Of a stretch of 64,000 nt of DNA, positions 7,433 to 64,000 are shown piece after piece. Made by a program: the position numbers and the translations under genes. Source of the DNA: Xenopus tropicalis (Eukaryota; Chordata; Amphibia; Anura; Pipidae). A model generated the notes under the pieces. The model was given only the letters and a program-made list of their open reading frames with translations. It searched no databases and was not told the DNA's origin. Position 1 is the first letter of the stretch, and every line of letters begins with the position of its first letter. The DNA is taken from assembly GCF_000004195.4 (NCBI RefSeq), contig NC_030679.2:19621212-19685211 (forward strand). Reading direction: 5' to 3'.

Positions 7433-7789
7433 CGTTTTTTTAATTTCTTTCCCTAAGTCCTGTGAGCGCTGAGTCCTCTGTTACTTTATATATATATATA
7501 TACTGCTTTTTTTTATCTTCTGACGAAGGTCCCTGTAAGAGATTGAAACGTTGAGGTTTGCAATGTTCCTTTTCAAATAAAAATTTTTTTTATACATATG
7601 ATTAAAATCCTGTGAGTGCTACACTACTTTTGCTCTATTTCGTTCTAATTGCTCTTGCACCCAGGTCTAAACACTGTTAGTGTAGTGCACCATTTTCCTT
7701 ATATATATATATATATAGGTTTTTTTTTTACCCATACTTTCATGCAATACTGAGACAATTGGTTGAGCAGTTTGGCAGCCCCTACTTAC

Positions 7790-8269
7790 CGGTTCCCTTC
7801 TCCTCTTGCCATCCACCTTTTTGAGTTCAGCTTTGAAGCCCTCTGTGCCCCCCGGCTCACTGTCCTTAGCCAACACATCCATCAAGTAGCCAATGTAGCT
7901 GGTGGCTAGTCTTAGGGTCTTGATTTTGGAGAGCTTAGTATCAGCTGGCACGTTGGGGATGCACTCTCTCAGTTCAGCAAAGGCACTATTGATGCTTTCT
8001 GTCCTTCTCCTTTCTTTCTTGGGGGGAGCCCCTTTCCTCCTCCCCAACTTTCCCCCCAGAGTCTCCATGCGGCCGGGTGTCTGGGAAGGTCCCACCACCG
8101 CTCCGTACTCAGGGCTATAGGGGGGCTGTGCTGGGAAGTCAGGTGACACCTCTCCTGGGTTAAGCACCCATCCCTGGAAGTAAGGTCTCTCCTGGTGGCA
8201 CCTGGAGCCAGGCGAGAAGATAAAGGGATCTGGCATCATGTGGTGCTGGTAGCTCCCAATGAGGTTCAT
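7790..8269 (-). CDS. hand1: hand1 exon 1 (residues 1-160, complete bHLH domain)
   Basis: Encodes the first 160 residues of HAND1, a Twist-subfamily bHLH factor that binds E-box DNA as a dimer with E-proteins and acts in heart, lateral mesoderm and extra-embryonic development in vertebrates. The N-terminus [16 protein letters not shown] and [11 protein letters not shown] are family signatures. The basic region is residues 77-92 ([13 protein letters not shown]), helix 1 about 92-105, the loop NVPADTKLS 106-114, and helix 2 about 114-135 ([18 protein letters not shown]). Thr90 and Ser92 match the helix-1 phospho-sites known in mouse Hand1. Only two of the N-terminal histidines that are numerous in mammals remain. 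The start at 8269 fits MNLIGSY and a good context (ACCATGA); another in-frame ATG lies 9 nt upstream at 8278. The exon ends at the GTAAGT donor (GT at 7788-7789); reading on gives a false 209-codon frame. Confidence 0.97.
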
Positions 8270-8700
8270 GGTCTGCATAAGTTTCCACAGCTCCACTAAA
8301 ACAACTCAGCTTCTGGCACCTCCTCAGTGGGAAGCCATTAGCTCTGGCATCAGAACATCCTTAGATACACTGCAGACACTCCTCAGGGAAGCGGCCAAGC
8401 AGGGGAATGATCTAGTCCAGTATCCAGCTGCTTACAAGCCAAGATATGTAGATACAGGCTTATACAGGATCAAGGAAAATCAGCTGTAAAACAACAAGCT
8501 TCATCCAGGCTGAGTCTGTGCTGCGCTAGGCAGTTTAACCCTTCTGCACCCTATAGAGCACTTTATATAGATCTCCAAGTCTGATGTAAGACAGCTGGGA
8601 GAGCCAATGGGAGGGAGGAGAGGAGAGGGTTGGCCCAAATAAACAGCCCTAATTACCTGGATCTCTGATTACACTTTGGGTAACTTCGTTTTTCAACCTG
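8270..8700 (-). promoter_or_regulatory. hand1: hand1 5' UTR and proximal promoter
   Basis: On the minus strand a TATATAAAG box lies at 8561-8569, about 290 bp upstream of the ATG, predicting a start site near 8535. Upstream are an E-box CAGCTG (8592-8597), an ATTGG/CCAAT pair (8604-8608), a TAAACA Fox-type word and a TAATTA homeodomain core (about 8640-8656), and a GGATAA GATA-type word near 8705. The positions are read directly. Their use is inferred from their compact arrangement at the right distance from the gene. Confidence 0.7.
8561..8569 (-). promoter_or_regulatory. hand1: hand1 TATA box
   Basis: TATATAAAG on the minus strand is a strong TATA match. It sits upstream of the only nearby gene and in its orientation, with CCAAT and E-box words 25-45 bp further upstream. 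Confidence 0.7.
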
Positions 8701-15952: not shown

Positions 15953-18046
15953 TAGTAACATAGTAACATAGTAAGTTGGGTTGAAAAAAGACATACGTCC
16001 ATCAAGTTCAACCATAATGCCTATATATAACCTGCCTAACTACTAGTTAATCCAGAGGAAGGCAAAAACCCCCATCTGAAGCCTCTCTAATTTGCCACAG
16101 AGGGGAAAAAATTCCTTCCTGACTCCAAGATGGCAATCGGACCAGTCCCTGGATCAACTAGTACTAAGAGCTATCTCCCATAACCCTGTATTCCCTCACT
16201 TGCTAAGAATCCATCCAGCCCCTTCTTAAAGTTATATAATGTATCAGCCAGCACGACTGATTCGGGGAGGGAATTCCAGAACATACACAGCTCTCACTGT
16301 AAAAAATCCTTTCCGAATGTTTAAATGGAACCTCCCTTCTTCTAAACGGAGTGGGTGCCCTCGTGTCCGTTGGAAGGACCTACTGGTAAATAAAACATTA
16401 GAAAGGTTATTATATGATCCCCTTATATATTTATACATAGTTATCATGTCACCTCTTAAGCGCCTCTTCTCCAGTGTAAACAGACCCAACTTGGCCAGTC
16501 TTTCTTCATAACTGAGACTTTCCATACCCTTTACCAACTTAGTTGCCCTTCTCTGGACCCTCTCTAACTCAATAATGTCCCGTTTGAGCACTGGAGACCA
16601 AAACTGAACAGCATATTCTAGATGGGGCCTTACCAGCGCTCTGTAAAGGGGAAGAATAACCCCCTCCTCCCGTGAATCTATACCCCTTTTAATACAGCTC
16701 AAAACCCTGTTTGCCCTTGCAGCTGCTGCCTGGCATTGCTTGCTACAGCCAAGTTTATTATCTACAAGGACTCCAAGGTCCTTCTCCATTAGGGATTTGC
16801 CTAGTGCAGTCCCATTAAGGGTATACGGGGCTTGCATATTTTTACATCCCAGGTGCATGACCTTACATTTATCCACATTAAATCTCATCTGCCACTTAGC
16901 CGCCCAGATTGCCAGTTGGTAAAGATCCTGCTGCAGGGATGTCACATCCTGGATAGAATTGACTGGTCTGCAGAGTTTTGTGTCATCTGCAAACACTGAT
17001 ACATTACTTATAATACCCTCCCCTAAGTCATTTATGAACAAATTAAACAAAAGTGGACCCAGTACAGAACCCTGAGGGACCCCACTGAGAACCTTACTCC
17101 AAGTAGAGAATGTGCCATTAACAACCACCCTCTGTACCCGATCCTGTAGCCAGTTTTCTATCCATGTGCAAACGACTTCACTAAGACCAATAGACCTTAG
17201 CTTAGAAAGCAGTCGTTTGTGGGGAACGGTATCAAATGCTTTGGCAAAATCCAAATAGATTATATCTACTGCATCCCCACTGTCCAGCTTCTTACTTACC
17301 TCATCATAAAAAGCAATTAAATTGGTCTGACATGACCTGTCCTTCATAAAGCCATGTTGATTACTGCTCATAATGGCATTCTCCACTACATAATTTTGAA
17401 TGTGATCCCTTAACAAGCCTTCAAATAACTTGCCCACCACGGATGTCAAACTTACAGGCCTATAATTGCCAGGCTGAGATCTTACTCCCTTTTTAAATAT
17501 GGGAATGACATTCGCCTTCTTCCAATCCCTAGGTACCATACCTGATGAAAGAGAGTCTGAGAATATCAGAAACAAGGGCCACTGCAATTCTGCCCCTAGC
17601 TCTCTCAGTACCCGAGGGTGTATTCCATCTGGCCCAGGTGCCTTGTTTACATTTATCGTGTGTAACCCTTTAAGCACCATATCCTGTGCCAACCACTGTA
17701 TAGTTGGAGCTGAGGCAACAGTGCAGCTATTGGGTGGGACTTGGCCCACTGGCTCCTCTACTGTATACACAGAAAAAAAGAACTGGTTAAGCACATCTGC
17801 CTTTTCTGTATCCACTGTAACCATATTGTTATTATAACTCAATGGGGCCACACCCTCAACCTGCATCTTTTTACTATTAATATACTTAAAAAACTTTTTG
17901 GGGTTAGTCTTGGCCTCGGCCGCGATGCGCTCCTCATTTTCTATCTTTGCCTTCCGGATTGCTGTTTTACAACACTTGTTATAGTGATGCGCTTTACCAT
18001 CATGCATCACTATATGCCAGTGCCCCCTACCCCTCCTGCTCATCAT
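15953..18046 (-). mobile_element. 5'-truncated CR1-like LINE with near-intact reverse transcriptase
   Basis: The minus-strand ORF 16244-18046 (600 codons) encodes a non-LTR retrotransposon reverse transcriptase. In order it shows KAPGPDGI (135-142), NYRPVSL (194-200), DFAKAFD (266-272), GVPQGS (322-327) and the catalytic FADD (352-355), with the usual C-terminal block ([12 protein letters not shown], 494-505). The N-terminal endonuclease expected in CR1/L2 ORF2 (family length about 900-1000 residues) is missing, so the copy is 5'-truncated near 18.05 kb. The last 13 or so residues are out of frame: the next frame continues NSLPESVVLADT to a TAG at 16171, so a small indel lies near 16283-16288. 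The 3' UTR ends in about three TTACTATG units at 15953-15977, the 8-bp tail typical of CR1. Confidence 0.92.
16244..18046 (-). pseudogene. CR1-like ORF2 remnant: reverse transcriptase, endonuclease missing, C-terminus frameshifted
   Basis: It would copy the element's own RNA into target DNA by target-primed reverse transcription. The ORF has no internal stop across all RT blocks and keeps both catalytic aspartates of FADD, so decay is slight. It cannot be autonomous, because the upstream endonuclease domain is absent and the leader MMSRRGRG is probably target or spacer sequence read by chance. The natural C-terminus (…KKGLDGFLASEGIQGYGR) is recovered only in the neighbouring frame. It is not a host gene. 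Confidence 0.88.
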
Positions 18047-18049
18047 ACT

Positions 18050-18985
18050 TACTCACTGTGTGCCTTTCAACCCACTTTTCCCCTGCACCTCAATGGGGCA
18101 ATAGAAGGTGGGGATGTGCCTTGGGCGCTGCCTTGGGACTGACAAAGCTTGGGACTGGCCTCAAACCATCAATAATAACAATTAGCTGATCTTAAAGTAA
18201 ATTAGAGTTTAAAACATTGTATGGTTTGAATGCAGTATTTCAAGAATGTTTGGTGCCAGTGCTGCAGCATACTTTGTGGAATAAAAATCATGTGGAACCA
18301 CATTACTTACACTTTATAAACAATAGTGTACAGTGTTATATATATATATCATTTTGGCTGTATATATGTTTTTATATGTTACATCTTTGCTGCCGTAGGC
18401 GTCGAACCCCCTGAAAATGACTTGATATGGTATAATATGTAAGTAAAACCTATACTTACAAGAAGACGCGATGGGATGCAAACCAGATCAGTGCAACTAA
18501 AATTGCATCCCATTGCATTTTGCTGTGATCGCCACATGAATGCATACATTAAATGCTATACTATTGCAAATCATTTTTAGGGGATTTGTAACCCACAGCA
18601 GCACAGATATATATATATATATATATATTGCTTTTGTTTTTGCCAAGTCCTGAGAGTACAGTGCCTTGTTGCTGATTGGTACAGTCTGTGCATGTGTCCA
18701 TTGTGAAAGGGAGGGTTACCCCTATTCCTCGGCTCTGCCTCCAGATTTAGCTGCATGTGGAATTGTTATGTGTTTTTTTTCTGCATAGGCACCCAAGGAG
18801 ACATATATATAGATCTAATGTGCCGGTGTTATATAACACATACACATATATACATTAGTAATAATCAGGTCTAGCTAAACTAGAGGTCCTTCTGGGATTC
18901 AAGGGAAAGTTTGATGTACAAACTTTATTTATAGATAAATAATCTTGAGTTGTTCTTGCAGACTTGTGCTTAGAAAAGAAGCAGA
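18050..18985. other. no gene recognised; AT-rich with (TA)n tracts
   Basis: Contains (TA)n at about 18608-18628 and 18345-18375. Short plus-strand ORFs overlap the CR1 junction and carry no domain. Confidence 0.5.
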
Positions 18986-46230: not shown

Positions 46231-46267
46231 GTCCAGGGCCTATTTGGAATCCCAGTCCAGACATGTT

Positions 46268-46340
46268 AGGGCTCTGGCACACGGGGAGATTACAAATCTC
46301 CCTGTTCGCGGACGACTAATCTCCCCGAAATGCCATGAAA
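46268..46340 (+). mobile_element. fragment of 'GGGCTCTGGCACAC' MITE
   Basis: GGGCTCTGGCACACGGGGAG followed by CAAATCTCCCTGTTCGCGG and CGACTAATCTCCCCGAAATG: the left arm of the family that forms the long hairpin immediately to the right. Three 17-bp direct repeats (GAAAAACCACCCT-type) bridge the two. Confidence 0.8.
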
Positions 46341-46362
46341 AACCACCCTGTGAAAAACCACC

Positions 46363-46714
46363 CTGTGAAAAACCACCCTTAGACTCTAAGGGCTCTGGCA
46401 CACGGGGATATTAGTCGCCCGCGACAAATCTCCCTGTTCACGGGCGACTAATCTCCCCGAAATCCCACCCCCCCGGCGAAAATGTAAATCGCCGGTGAGA
46501 TGGCATACGTGGCCGCGCGATTTCAGTGAAATCACGGAAGTTGCCTTGAGAGGAAATCGCGCGGCCACGTATGCCATCTCACCGGCGATTTACATTTTCG
46601 CCGGGGGGGTGGGATTTCGGGGAGATTAGTCGCCCGTGAACAGGGAGATTTGTCGCGGGCGACTAATATCCCCGTGTGCCAGAGCCCTTAGAGTCTAAGG
46701 GTGGTTTTTCACAG
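46363..46714. repeat. 352-bp hairpin: perfect 162-bp inverted repeat, 28-bp loop
   Basis: I compared both arms base by base. 46363-46524 and the reverse complement of 46553-46714 are identical over 162 bp, with the loop at 46525-46552. Each arm contains GGGCTCTGGCACACGGGG, AAATCTCCCTGTTCACGGGC and GTAAATCGCCGGTGAGATGG. The repeat extends past the expected MITE end (GGGCTC) through TTAGACTCTAA into flanking CTGTGAAAAACCACCC, so the inverted duplication includes non-element DNA on both sides. Confidence 0.97.
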
Positions 46715-46719
46715 CAACT

Positions 46720-48580
46720 TTTTTTTTTGGCAACTGTTTCTTTGTGGTGACTTTTTCCATTCTTGTGCAGAATATTCCAATGAGCTGAAGTGCATTGGGA
46801 AAGTCGCACAATAATAAAACCGTAGCAGAAATGGTCAAAACTTGCTCTTTTCCATCCATCAGGCAAAGCAAGTTGTAGGGTGACACAGAAGCTGTGCACA
46901 ATCCCTCCATTCTCTTATGTCCAAAAACAAAAAAATTCCATTCTATGAGAGTTGTCCAAATAAGCAGAGGCAAGCTGTAGCAAAGCCCAGTGTTGTCCTA
47001 TATGTCCAGTTGGCTGATATGGTCCATGTTTGTGTGATGGAATATACTAAAATGGCGCCATTACACATAAAGTCAGTGGAGCTGTGGAGGCAAAGGAGAA
47101 CCATAAAATAACTTGGAGGGCCATAAATGTGCCACAGGCCCTCAGGGGTTAACAGAAGTTCTTGCTGGGCTGCAAATCACACTGAACCCTGGCTTTTGGA
47201 AAGAAGGAGCTACAGGTAGTGGAACAATGAGACAGTTTGTATCTTGTAATTGATAGTGTTTCTCCCTGATATGATGGATCTCTGAACAGCGGGGAAGTAT
47301 GTATGCAATGTTAGCTCATAGCTTGTGTGTTTGGAATTCATATCCCTTCTGTCAAACATTCCCTCACTCTGCACTGCTCTGTGGGCTTCTGCTGCACACT
47401 GTACTCTACCTGCCTGCTGCCTCGTGTATCCAGCTACACCATCCCTCCTGACCCCTCTGCTTTGAAAGGCTGCGATTTACACACCCGGGTCAAAGATCAA
47501 AGCGACCCCTGACCAGCAACAGTGTTTTTAACATGAAGCATAAGCCTATTATCTATATGGCACCATGGTTGTAAAATGTGACCACATTAAACACAGTGGC
47601 TCTCATTAGCTAGCTCTGCTTGGGCTCCCGGACCACCTACTATTTAGGTCCTACAAGTCACTGTCAAAATCTGGCTTTGTTCTGCATTGGTTTGAACTGG
47701 AAAAAAAAGGAATCTCTGTTCTCCACACTGAAAGAGTATGGTGTATACATGCACTGCAGATTTTACTTTAATGAAAATATAAAACTATTGTCTAAGGGCA
47801 ACCTGCGGTAGCTGAGATTTTTGCCATGGGCAAAAAACTCCCCATCCCGCCACTACCCTAAATGATAAAGGAAATTTGTTCATAAAGAGGCAAAATTCCC
47901 TGATAGCAAGGACTGTATTCTAACTGCTACCATAAAGGCTTAGGGTGATAGTTGCCCATGATAAATCCTTGGGTTACTTTGCAAAAACGGTGATTTACAT
48001 TACTGTTGGTGGGAAAACATTGGGCCTCACACCCCAAGGGCTATGACATTAGTTGCCCATGATAAATCTTCTCTATTGGGGGCGACTAATCTTCCTGTCT
48101 GCCGTAGCTCTTAGGGTGTGAGGCGCAAGCTGCTGCCTGCTGAGAGAGCACAGGAAATCTCAAAAAGGACTGTGAGTGTAATTTTCAATTTTATTGTGCT
48201 GCATTACTTTGCCCTTATTGTTTCTGGGGGTCCTTTGAAAGGGTCAGATTTGTCAGCAAAATTGTCAATTGTTTGTTTTAATGAGGAATCAGAAGTATGG
48301 ACTTTGATTTTTTTCTGTCTAAACTTCTGTGTGCAATAAAAACTCTGAGTACCTGTCTCTGATCTGAGTAAAAGGTGCTGCTACCTAGAGTGATCCCCCA
48401 TAATTTGTGATTGGATGCGGGCAGTATCTTTTATTCTTAAAGAGATATCCTATTAAGCATGTTGGTGTGACTCTTTATGGAAGAGATTATAAAACAGTTT
48501 GCACAGGCTCATGCCCATCAGCAGCAGATCAACTCGAGCCGACACCAAGCCAATGTACAGATCATGAAACTCTAACTTGG
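46720..48580. other. no gene recognised
   Basis: Unassigned DNA. Decayed pieces of a GTTGCCCATGATAAATC inverted-repeat element lie at about 47950-48120. ORFs are short and unsupported. Confidence 0.4.
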
Positions 48581-58739: not shown

Positions 58740-58907
58740 AGTCCAAAGTAGATGCCGCACTCACTTAGTGCAAATAAAGAAATATTTATTTGATGGAAAA
58801 CACGTCAAACTAACGTTGATACGGCCGAAACGTTAGTTTGACGTGTTTTCCATCAAATAAATATTTCTTTATTTGCACTAAGTCCTGTGAGTGCGGCATC
58901 TACTTTG

Positions 58908-60375: not shown

Positions 60376-60970
60376 CCGTATATACTCGAGTATAAGCCGA
60401 TCCGAATATAAGCCAAGGTACCTAATTTTACCTAAGAAAACGGGAAAAACTTATTGACTCGAGTATAAGCCTAGGGTGGGAAATGCAGCCGCTACTGCTA
60501 AGTTTCAAGAATCAAAATAAATACCAATAAAATGACATTAATTGAGGCATCAGTGGGGTATATGTTTTTAAATATTTATTTCAAAGAAAAACAGTAAACT
60601 AGCTCTGTAAGCGGAGAAGAGGGTCCAAAAAAACAATATGAATACTACCCCACGCTCATTGCACATTGGCAAAATGGCGGCAGTCCTGATCCCGGAGGAC
60701 ACGTAAGGGGAAATAAGTATTGCAGTTGCAATACTTATTTCCCCTTACGTGTCCTCCGGGATCAGGACTGCCGCCATTTTGCCAATGTGCAATGAGCGTG
60801 GGGTAGTGGGCCAATGAGCGTGGGGGAGCGGGCCAGGGCACTGGAGGGTCTGGTTGCGGTTGGCCTAATTTGCACACAAAGGACAGAGGGTGTTAGTCTG
60901 GAGGGACCCAGACTCGAGTATAAGCACATTTTGGGTGCTGAAAAACTAGGCTTATACTTGAGTATATACA
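60376..60970. mobile_element. 'TATATACTCGAGTATAAGCC' MITE, 595 bp
   Basis: CCGTATATACTCGAGTATAA GCC at the left is mirrored by GGCTTATACTTGAGTATATA CA at the right. Additional internal CTCGAGTATAAGC words occur at about 60458 and 60913. It encloses the perfect palindrome at 60644-60807. No ORF encodes a transposase. Confidence 0.85.
60644..60807. repeat. 164-bp near-zero-loop perfect palindrome
   Basis: Arms 60644-60724 and 60727-60807 are exactly complementary over 81 bp, separated by only GT at 60725-60726. Words include AATGGCGGCAGTCCTGATCC and GGAGGACACGTAAGGGG. I checked it base by base. Confidence 0.97.
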
Positions 60971-62070: not shown

Positions 62071-63034
62071 GGGGTTGATTCACTAAAGTGTGATAAATTT
62101 TATCGCACGTTTTTTTGCGTTAAAATAGATGCGAAAATTAGCGCGCGATTCACTACAGTATTACCACGTGCATTAAGTCGCATATCGCATGCGTTATTTT
62201 TCGTGCGACCGCATGCGTTAGTTTTAACGCATGCGTTAAATAGCGCGCTGAAAAGAATACTAACGCATGATTCACAAACACTTAGGCGCGCTAAATATCA
62301 CATTAGTCTATGCGAAAAATAACACCTACTTGAGGCAGGCGATAATTATAGAAAAGTACAATAAATGAGCTTTTGGCAATAAAATATGGACTTTGCAGTG
62401 TTATTTATTCAAGTCTGTGTTTCCCCTAGAGTGACAGTAATTTTACAGTAATTTTACGAAAGTACTGGCATGTATGGCTAACATGGCGTGCGTTTATTTG
62501 CGCGACTATTTATATGCGGCTACAATTGATGAAATGTTTCGCCAGGCATGGATTTGCGGCCAATTTTTGGACGTGCGGCAAATTTTTCCGTGGCAATTTT
62601 TTTCATGCGTTTTGCCATTGGCGGATTGTTTTGCGAAATGCATGCAAATCGCCGTGGAAAAATTTGCCGCACGTCCAAAAATTGCCCGCAAATCCATGCC
62701 TGGCGAAACATTTCATCAATTGTAGCCGCATATAAATAGTCGCGGGCAACAATTTTTTAAGCAGCTACTAATTATATGCTACTAATTATATGCTACCATT
62801 TATATGTGGTGACAATTCATATGCGGTGACTATCTATTTGCGGCGACTATACGCGGGCGTTAATTAGCGCATGTACCGTCAAATACTGAACGAAAATAGT
62901 CTTCCCGAGTTAAATAATGCATGCAATATCGCGCGTAAATTAGCGCAAGTATTAGCTGAAAATTTAGACGCGATAAAATTTTTAACGCACGCTATAAATA
63001 GCGCACATTTTATCGCACTTTAGTGAATCAGCCC
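62071..63034. mobile_element. long nested inverted-repeat MITE ('GGGGTTGATTCACTAAAGTG'), 964 bp
   Basis: GGGGTTGATTCACTAAAGTG at the left is mirrored by CACTTTAGTGAATCAGCCC at the right, with TTAT flanking both sides. GATAAATTTTATCGCACG and GCGCACATTTTATCGC continue the arms. The body is saturated with GCGC, TTAACGC and GCATGCG words. A second, separate inverted repeat sits at its centre (62501-62744). Confidence 0.85.
62501..62744. repeat. inner inverted repeat of the 62-63 kb element
   Basis: CGCGACTATTTATATGCGGC TACAATTGATGAAATG at the left and its complement at the right. Overlapping 63-83-codon frames on both strands read almost the same peptides because the DNA is self-complementary. 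Confidence 0.9.
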
Positions 63035-63580: not shown

Positions 63581-63587
63581 TGTTTAA

Positions 63588-63917
63588 GGGCTCTGGCACA
63601 CGAGGAGATTTGTCGCCGGCGATTTTAAAAAGAGCGATTTGGCGACAAGACGCCAATGCTAAATCAATGGAAATCGCCAGCGTCAAAACATACGAGGCTA
63701 CTTCAAATCGCCTGCTGTTTCAAATCTCACACAGACTCTTTTCTGAGCGACTTGAGTAAACATGAGGGGGGGTTAACTGTTGAGTGTACCATGGGTAGCA
63801 GATCGCCTGGAGCTCAACTCGCATGAAATCTCTTTGTGTGTATAGTCGTGGCGACTTGTCGCCAAAGCGCCAGGGGGAAAAAACGCAGGCGACAAATCTC
63901 CTTGTGTGCCAGAGCCC
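63588..63917. mobile_element. 'GGGCTCTGGCACAC' Harbinger-like MITE, 330 bp, TAA duplication
   Basis: GGGCTCTGGCACACGAGGAG ATTTGTCGCC at the left, GGCGACAAATCTCCTTGTGT GCCAGAGCCC at the right. TAA flanks both sides (63585-63587 and 63918-63920). The interior repeats GGCGACAA / GCGATTT words. The reference copy for this family in the window. Confidence 0.92.
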
Positions 63918-64000
63918 TAAGACATGGAAAAAGAATAAAAGAAAGCAAAGTTATCTAGGAAAGGAGCACAAAAGGAAGTACTTTCCCTTAAGTATTACAT

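What the first reader, a model, noticed from the sequence alone, without database searches (positions are those of the whole stretch)
46363..46714. Perfect 162-bp inverted repeat that extends beyond the MITE ends
Both arms are identical over 162 bp, which implies a very recent origin or active homogenisation by gene conversion. The symmetry does not stop at the expected element end (GGGCTC): it runs through TTAGACTCTAA into CTGTGAAAAACCACCC, which is present as direct repeats on the left only. So it is not a simple MITE insertion with a target duplication. It looks like an inverted duplication of an inserted element plus flank. If transcribed, it would give a 162-bp perfect dsRNA stem, a possible source of endogenous siRNA.
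Basis: partly seen in the sequence, partly recalled or inferred. Interest (0 to 1): 0.75.

Follow-up and report, generated by a model that had tools for sequence, protein, structure and literature searches.

The report
Palindrome made by fold-back DNA copying
A frog mobile-DNA remnant had one of its arms, plus neighbouring DNA, copied back over the other arm in mirror image, most likely when a copying or repair polymerase folded back on the element's own hairpin; it looks like a clear case of a known kind of mutation, not a new kind of element.

Summary
In detail: 162-bp arms (46363-46524, 46553-46714), 100% complementary, 28-nt spacer, symmetry running 27 bp past the element end. The element is one copy of a dispersed ~298-bp MITE ending in GGGCTC; 32 of 39 other copies have a direct TTA or TAA duplication. 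The outer junction matched nothing else in the own genome, so a larger MITE is unlikely. The focal copy is not young: 8 substitutions per arm against the consensus (others' mean 6.8), yet all 8 are mirrored. So one arm was overwritten recently. The 'outer' GGGCTC fragment at 46269-46336 is best read as the original left arm: it restores a direct TTA/TTA duplication (46266-46268, 46688-46690). The same architecture occurs 14 kb away (60644-60807), where 20 of 20 fetched related copies lack the insert; an older case sits on another copy (L013). Small-RNA function was not testable. Mechanism class known: fold-back templated synthesis.

The parts
46266..46268 (+). TTA, proposed left target-site duplication of the original insertion
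   Evidence: context CATG-TTA-GGGCTC; 32 of 39 other copies have direct TTA/TTA or TAA/TAA
46269..46336 (+). proposed remnant of the original left arm (consensus positions 1-79 with an 11-bp internal deletion); has the consensus state at the four focal substitution sites in its range (20, 51, 75, 79)
46336..46362 (-). 27 nt recopied from the end of the right flank: one full 15-nt unit plus 12 nt of a second; 1-nt overlap (T) with the left arm
46363..46389 (-). inverted copy of 24 bp of right flank plus the TTA
   Evidence: no other match to the junction
46390..46524 (-). inverted copy of the right arm, replacing the inner part of the original left arm
46525..46552 (+). spacer (centre of the MITE), similar to the centre of relative L008
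46553..46687 (+). native right arm of the MITE, 8 substitutions against consensus over 129 positions
46688..46690 (+). TTA, right target-site duplication
46691..46714 (+). native right flank that was copied inverted to the left; no other match in the genome apart from its image
46719..46728 (+). T10 tract next to the point where copying stopped
60644..60807 (.). second event of the same architecture in the window: 81-bp donor (60644-60724), inverted copy (60727-60807); a 14-nt recopy follows at 60812-60825

Best explanation
One PIF/Harbinger-like MITE inserted at a TTA site and aged normally. Later, a DNA strand growing leftwards through the right flank, right arm and hairpin centre folded back (or switched strand), used the right arm as template, and ran outwards through the arm end, TTA and 24 bp of right flank, stopping 4 bp short of a T10 tract. 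It slipped and recopied the last 15 nt about twice, then returned to the original left arm at consensus position about 79. The result is a perfect 162-bp inverted repeat with an outer arm remnant and tandem 15-mers on the left. Shown: the structure, the lack of other matches to the junction, the shared substitutions, the age mismatch. Inferred: the single-event order, the right-to-left direction, and whether the trigger was replication stalling or a double-strand break.
For: Perfect arms with 27 bp of symmetric flank. Left junction matches only itself and its image in the genome; right flank matches only itself. Family ends at GGGCTC with direct TSD in 32 of 39 other copies. Focal 8 of 8 arm substitutions mirrored, others mean 1.05; seven of the eight pairs are in both arms of no other copy, the CpG site 121 in two (L025, L030), n = 38. 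The outer fragment supplies the missing left end and a matching TTA. The left segment decomposes completely into right-flank copy, 15 + 12 nt recopy and left arm. Second locus 60644-60807: 20 of 20 fetched copies (of 39 others listed) lack the insert, two differences of the window copy from the consensus are mirrored in the insert, and there is an exit-side recopy. Third: L013 has an 872-bp inverted duplication around another copy of the MITE.
Against: No orthologue or second individual was available, so the pre-event state of the focal locus is inferred. A TTA/TTA match is weak alone: 17 of the 32 direct duplications are TTA. TSDs do decay: L033, without flank duplication, is TAA/TTA, and L041 and L045 are TTA/TAA. 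Arms of other copies are not fully independent: 15 of 102 non-CpG left-arm substitutions are mirrored, and L035 (5 mirrored) and L020 (3) stand out. L013 shows no arm remnant outside its palindrome. The 39 copies were selected by similarity, the 40 scored of 3971 candidates. Genome DNA searches skip very common words, so uniqueness is not absolute.
Confidence: 0.75

Rival explanations
1. Same class of event, opposite direction: left arm and left flank (with pre-existing 15-mers) copied to the right; the outer fragment is a separate, truncated insertion of the same family.
For: The outer fragment has the consensus state at the four focal substitution sites in its range, as a separate copy would (but so would an unaffected original arm); local repeats on the donor side are possible.
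Against: Needs two insertions about 50 bp apart, loss of the outer copy's right end, and loss of the focal TSD; at 60644-60807, where the direction is known, the recopy lies on the side of the new arm, which for the focal locus points to the left.
Confidence: 0.14
2. Double-strand-break snap-back repair, possibly after transposase cutting or cruciform cleavage, rather than replication template switching: the resected 3' end folds on the MITE hairpin, is extended, realigns, and is joined to the other end. (A sub-mechanism of the best explanation, so its odds overlap with it.)
For: Passages of PMC9962433 say realignment cycles give direct and snap-back gives inverted templated insertions, the mixture seen; passages of PMC10622511 describe foldback priming at breaks near inverted repeats, with Pol delta fill-in.
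Against: The typical Pol theta insert is 3-10 nt, here about 189 nt. At 60.6 kb the inverted copy may start 2 nt beyond the point reached, if the window copy once read TTGCAAC like 5 of the 20 fetched copies, which would fit a switch to the other strand better.
Confidence: 0.4
3. A young insertion of a perfectly palindromic MITE subfamily into the centre of an older palindrome.
For: The family consensus arms are themselves symmetric over 129 bp; some substitutions are mirrored in other copies, 15 of 102 non-CpG ones, as inheritance from mirrored sources could give.
Against: Best other copy of the 40 scored is 90% identical; 7 of the 8 mirrored pairs are in both arms of none of 38 others; an odd-length direct TSD cannot be mirror-symmetric without a further mutation.
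Confidence: 0.04
4. Assembly or amplification artefact (fold-back chimera).
For: Palindromes are error-prone; no reads could be inspected.
Against: A chimera would not be expected to recopy 15 nt and return to the left arm; L013 flanks differ by about 3%, so that case cannot be such an artefact; a further locus in the window shows the same kind of event.
Confidence: 0.04

Closest known systems
Replication template-switch mutations (four-point model)
   Same: A reverse-complement copy of nearby sequence makes a perfect inverted repeat or perfects an existing one (PMC8794818 abstract and section 5; PMC7954356 abstract and passages); arm homogenisation (PMC8604942 abstract)
   Different: Here seeded by a MITE hairpin, 162 bp long and with recopying at the exit. 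The ape study requires donors not masked by RepeatMasker (passage), so such cases would be filtered out there
Foldback inversions at double-strand breaks
   Same: Intra-strand annealing at an inverted repeat primes synthesis outwards into flanking DNA (PMC10622511 passages)
   Different: Those products extend to the chromosome end; here copying stopped after the flank and returned to the original path
PIF/Harbinger MITEs (class recalled, not named by any search)
   Same: Short, terminal inverted repeats, 3-bp TWA duplication
   Different: The outer 27 bp of the inverted repeat are not part of the element

Membership tests
MITE of PIF/Harbinger type | Terminal inverted repeats with constant ends | tested here: met
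   GGGCTC at 38 of 40 left ends, GAGCCC at 37 of 40 right ends, focal included (counted); consensus arms symmetric
MITE of PIF/Harbinger type | Direct 3-bp TWA target duplication | tested here: met
   Family: 32 of 39 other copies; focal locus only if the outer fragment is its left arm
MITE of PIF/Harbinger type | Mobilised by a Harbinger transposase | not tested
   No autonomous partner was sought; the class is recalled from TSD and ends
Template-switch mutation | Perfect reverse-complement copy of nearby sequence, locus-specific | tested here: met
Template-switch mutation | Ancestral sequence without the copy known | tested here: inconclusive
   Focal: none available (right flank matches only itself). 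The 60.6-kb case meets it: 20 of 20 fetched copies
Pol theta templated insertion | Short insert (3-10 nt) templated from the flanks | tested here: not met
   about 189 nt here against 3-10 nt in PMC9962433
Larger MITE | Same outer junction in several copies | tested here: not met
   Only the locus itself and its mirror image (search skips very common words)
siRNA/siteRNA hairpin locus | Transcribed and processed to small RNAs | not testable with these tools
   Fold of 46330-46740 -372 kcal/mol, z -39.6 shows only that it could pair; no Rfam match at gathering score

The most novel reading that the evidence does not exclude
Palindromic MITEs act as recurrent seeds that grow outwards: fold-back synthesis on their hairpin re-perfects ageing arms and captures unique flanking DNA in inverted orientation (2 of 40 copies of one family examined, plus a non-MITE event 14 kb away). 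This would be a general, overlooked route by which a decayed transposon becomes a fresh, locus-specific long hairpin able to give small RNAs.
Probability: 0.3. Interest if true: 0.6.

Novelty: new member of a known kind. Interest (0 to 1): 0.42.

Why it matters
It explains how an old MITE copy can carry perfect arms and symmetric flanks without being young or larger, and warns against dating or delimiting such elements by arm identity. If frequent, it would link transposon hairpins to new palindromes, fragile sites and hairpin RNAs, in the repeat fraction that at least one template-switch scan filters out (PMC7954356, passage).

Tried and rejected
Larger-MITE reading: rejected, no other match to the junction. 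Young perfect subfamily: disfavoured. My first reading, left flank copied to the right with the outer fragment a separate insertion, was given up after the decomposition of the left segment. The hairpin centre as a direction marker was dropped: centres vary between copies and L008 resembles the focal type. Core sequence in viral contigs and genome contigs: 0 matches each; a 13-letter piece in papers: 0. Paper searches that gave nothing used here: 4 papers; 4; 13. L034 was dropped from the arm statistics because its right end is missing (n = 38 there; it is kept among the 39 for duplications). Inverted similarity between flanks that does not abut the element (L021, L024, L038, L040) was not counted. 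A rough time bound from zero differences in 162 pairs (2.3-4.6 My at assumed rates) is not relied on.

Full report
Observation. The inverted repeat is exact: 162-nt arms at 46363-46524 and 46553-46714 with a 28-nt spacer, the longest perfect one found in the window (arms of 16 nt or more, start-to-start distance under 3 kb; next 81, 59 and 55 nt). The symmetry passes the GGGCTC ends by 27 bp.

Source. The window lies at G000:C3:19621212-19685211 of an assembly of 1,451,301,209 bases in 167 contigs. From recall the size and repeats fit Xenopus tropicalis; no call names it. An ORF at 7667-8305 (-) has a helix-loop-helix domain and looks by recall like hand1.

The element. A search with the whole palindrome scored 40 of 3971 candidates and gave, besides the locus itself, 39 other full or near-full copies, fetched with flanks as L008-L046. 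With the focal copy included, 38 of 40 begin GGGCTC and 37 of 40 end GAGCCC. Of the 39, 17 have TTA on both sides and 15 TAA on both sides, 32 in all. The other seven are L013 and L033 (TAA/TTA), L041 and L045 (TTA/TAA), L029, L034 and L040. So the family has a direct 3-bp TWA duplication and ends at GGGCTC. The focal inner unit, taken alone, has TAA on the left and TTA on the right, which is mirrored rather than direct.

Not a larger MITE. The left junction (46326-46395) matches only itself and its own mirror image in the genome, and 46700-46960 matches only itself. The tool skips very common words, so this is strong but not absolute.

Old element, young symmetry. The consensus of 38 copies has arms symmetric over 129 bp. 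Against it, the focal arms carry 8 substitutions each, similar to the others (mean 6.8), but all 8 are the same in both arms; in the other 38 the mean number mirrored is 1.05. Arm-to-arm mismatches in the others range from 3 to 19; the focal copy has none. Seven of the eight mirrored pairs occur in both arms of no other copy; the eighth, a CpG site, does in two. With per-site frequencies from the other copies, independent arms would agree like this with a probability of about 10^-17 (rough). Full independence is too generous to my reading: in the other copies 15 of 102 non-CpG left-arm substitutions are mirrored too, and L035 (5 mirrored of 6 and 8, four of them CpG) and L020 (3 of 5 and 5) stand out, by inheritance or by smaller events of the same kind. 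With that background fraction (1.05 of 6.76) 8 of 8 has a probability of about 3.5 x 10^-7 (my arithmetic). Either way one arm was rewritten from the other, recently, in an old copy.

Anatomy of the event. To the left of the palindrome lie TTA (46266-46268) and a truncated arm of the same family, 46269-46336, consensus positions 1-79 with an 11-bp deletion and with the consensus state at the four focal substitution sites in its range. Between it and the palindrome are 27 nt (one base shared with the arm). On the bottom strand these are one full and one partial (12 nt) recopy of the last 15 nt of the copied right flank, GGTGGTTTTTCACAG. The simplest account is one insertion with TTA/TTA duplication: left end at 46269, right end at 46687. 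A leftward-growing strand copied the right arm and 27 bp of flank in reverse, stopped 4 bp before a T10 tract (46719-46728), recopied the last stretch, and went back to the left arm. The alternative needs two insertions, the loss of an end and of a duplication, and a separate duplication event. That the single-insertion account gives TTA on both sides is weak evidence alone, because about half of the direct duplications are TTA.

Independent support. At 60644-60807 the window holds 81-bp perfect arms with 2 nt between. The sequence belongs to a dispersed repeat (40 of 2002 candidates scored). Of the 39 other copies listed I fetched 20; in 20 of 20 the donor part runs straight into the downstream part, and none holds an exact inverted repeat of 10 nt or more. 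The window copy alone has about 96 bp more: an inverted copy of 60644-60724, in which two differences of the window copy from the consensus are mirrored, then a recopy of CAATGAGCGTGGGG at the exit (60790, 60812). Here the ancestral state and the direction are known, and the recopy lies beside the new arm, as proposed for the focal locus. On another copy of the MITE (L013) an inverted duplication of 872 bp is centred on the element (93.8% identity with gaps), with 240-bp flanks 96.7% identical: an older case. It shows no arm remnant outside, so its history is not identical. In all, 2 of 40 copies examined, the focal one included, have mirror-image flanks abutting the element; the sample was chosen by similarity and one of the 40 (L034) lacks its right end, so this is not a rate.

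Mechanism. Mismatch correction between paired arms cannot extend into non-homologous flank, so new synthesis with the arm as template is needed (inference). Replication template switching makes or perfects inverted repeats (PMC8794818, abstract and section 5 read; PMC8604942, abstract). In apes T8 and T10 motifs are enriched within 150 nt of the first switch point (PMC7954356, section 11 read); here the T10 tract lies at the exit point, so the parallel is loose. Break-induced fold-back with realignment is as good: snap-back gives inverted and realignment gives direct templated inserts (PMC9962433, passages), though the typical size there is 3-10 nt. I cannot separate the two. At 60.6 kb the inverted copy would begin 2 nt beyond the point reached if the window copy once read TTGCAAC like 5 of the 20 fetched copies, a weak hint of a switch to the other strand.

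Function. As RNA the region would form a very strong hairpin (-372 kcal/mol), which follows from the palindrome alone. X. tropicalis has small RNAs from intronic transposons (siteRNAs, 23-29 nt; PMC7786948 passage); a study in X. laevis found no enrichment of 29-nt intronic sequences in blastula samples (PMC5774138 passage). Nothing here shows transcription of this locus. I saw no paper on MITE-seeded template switches in the listings of two searches (15 of 52 papers listed, 14 of 14; titles and abstract starts only).

Verdict. A real, well-explained structural mutation of a known kind in an unremarkable MITE, with an unusually complete footprint and a second example nearby.

Noticed in passing
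60600-60860: Second locus-specific perfect palindrome (81-bp arms, 2 nt apart) in a dispersed repeat; 20 of 20 fetched copies lack the inverted insert.
   Followed up: yes
L049:4487-5358: 872-bp inverted duplication centred on another copy of the same MITE, with a 10-bp tandem repeat (AAATGAGGTT) at one edge.
   Followed up: partly
48023-48124: Degenerate small relative whose inverted repeat also passes the GGGCT end (CCTCACACCC / GGGTGTGAGG), perhaps an older event of the same kind.
   Followed up: no
L008-L046, element centre: The hairpin centre differs in many copies, with gaps mainly on one side of the centre; possibly hairpin-tip deletions. Copies were oriented to the focal one, so the sidedness may be an artefact.
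   Followed up: no
63585-63924: Related but diverged element with TAA on both sides and GGGCTC ends.
   Followed up: partly
62501-62744 and 58763-58883: Inverted repeats with 59- and 55-bp perfect arms; not checked for being locus-specific.
   Followed up: no
7667-8305 (-); 16244-18052 (-): bHLH ORF resembling hand1 (recalled) and a reverse-transcriptase ORF, probably of a LINE-like element (element class recalled).
   Followed up: partly
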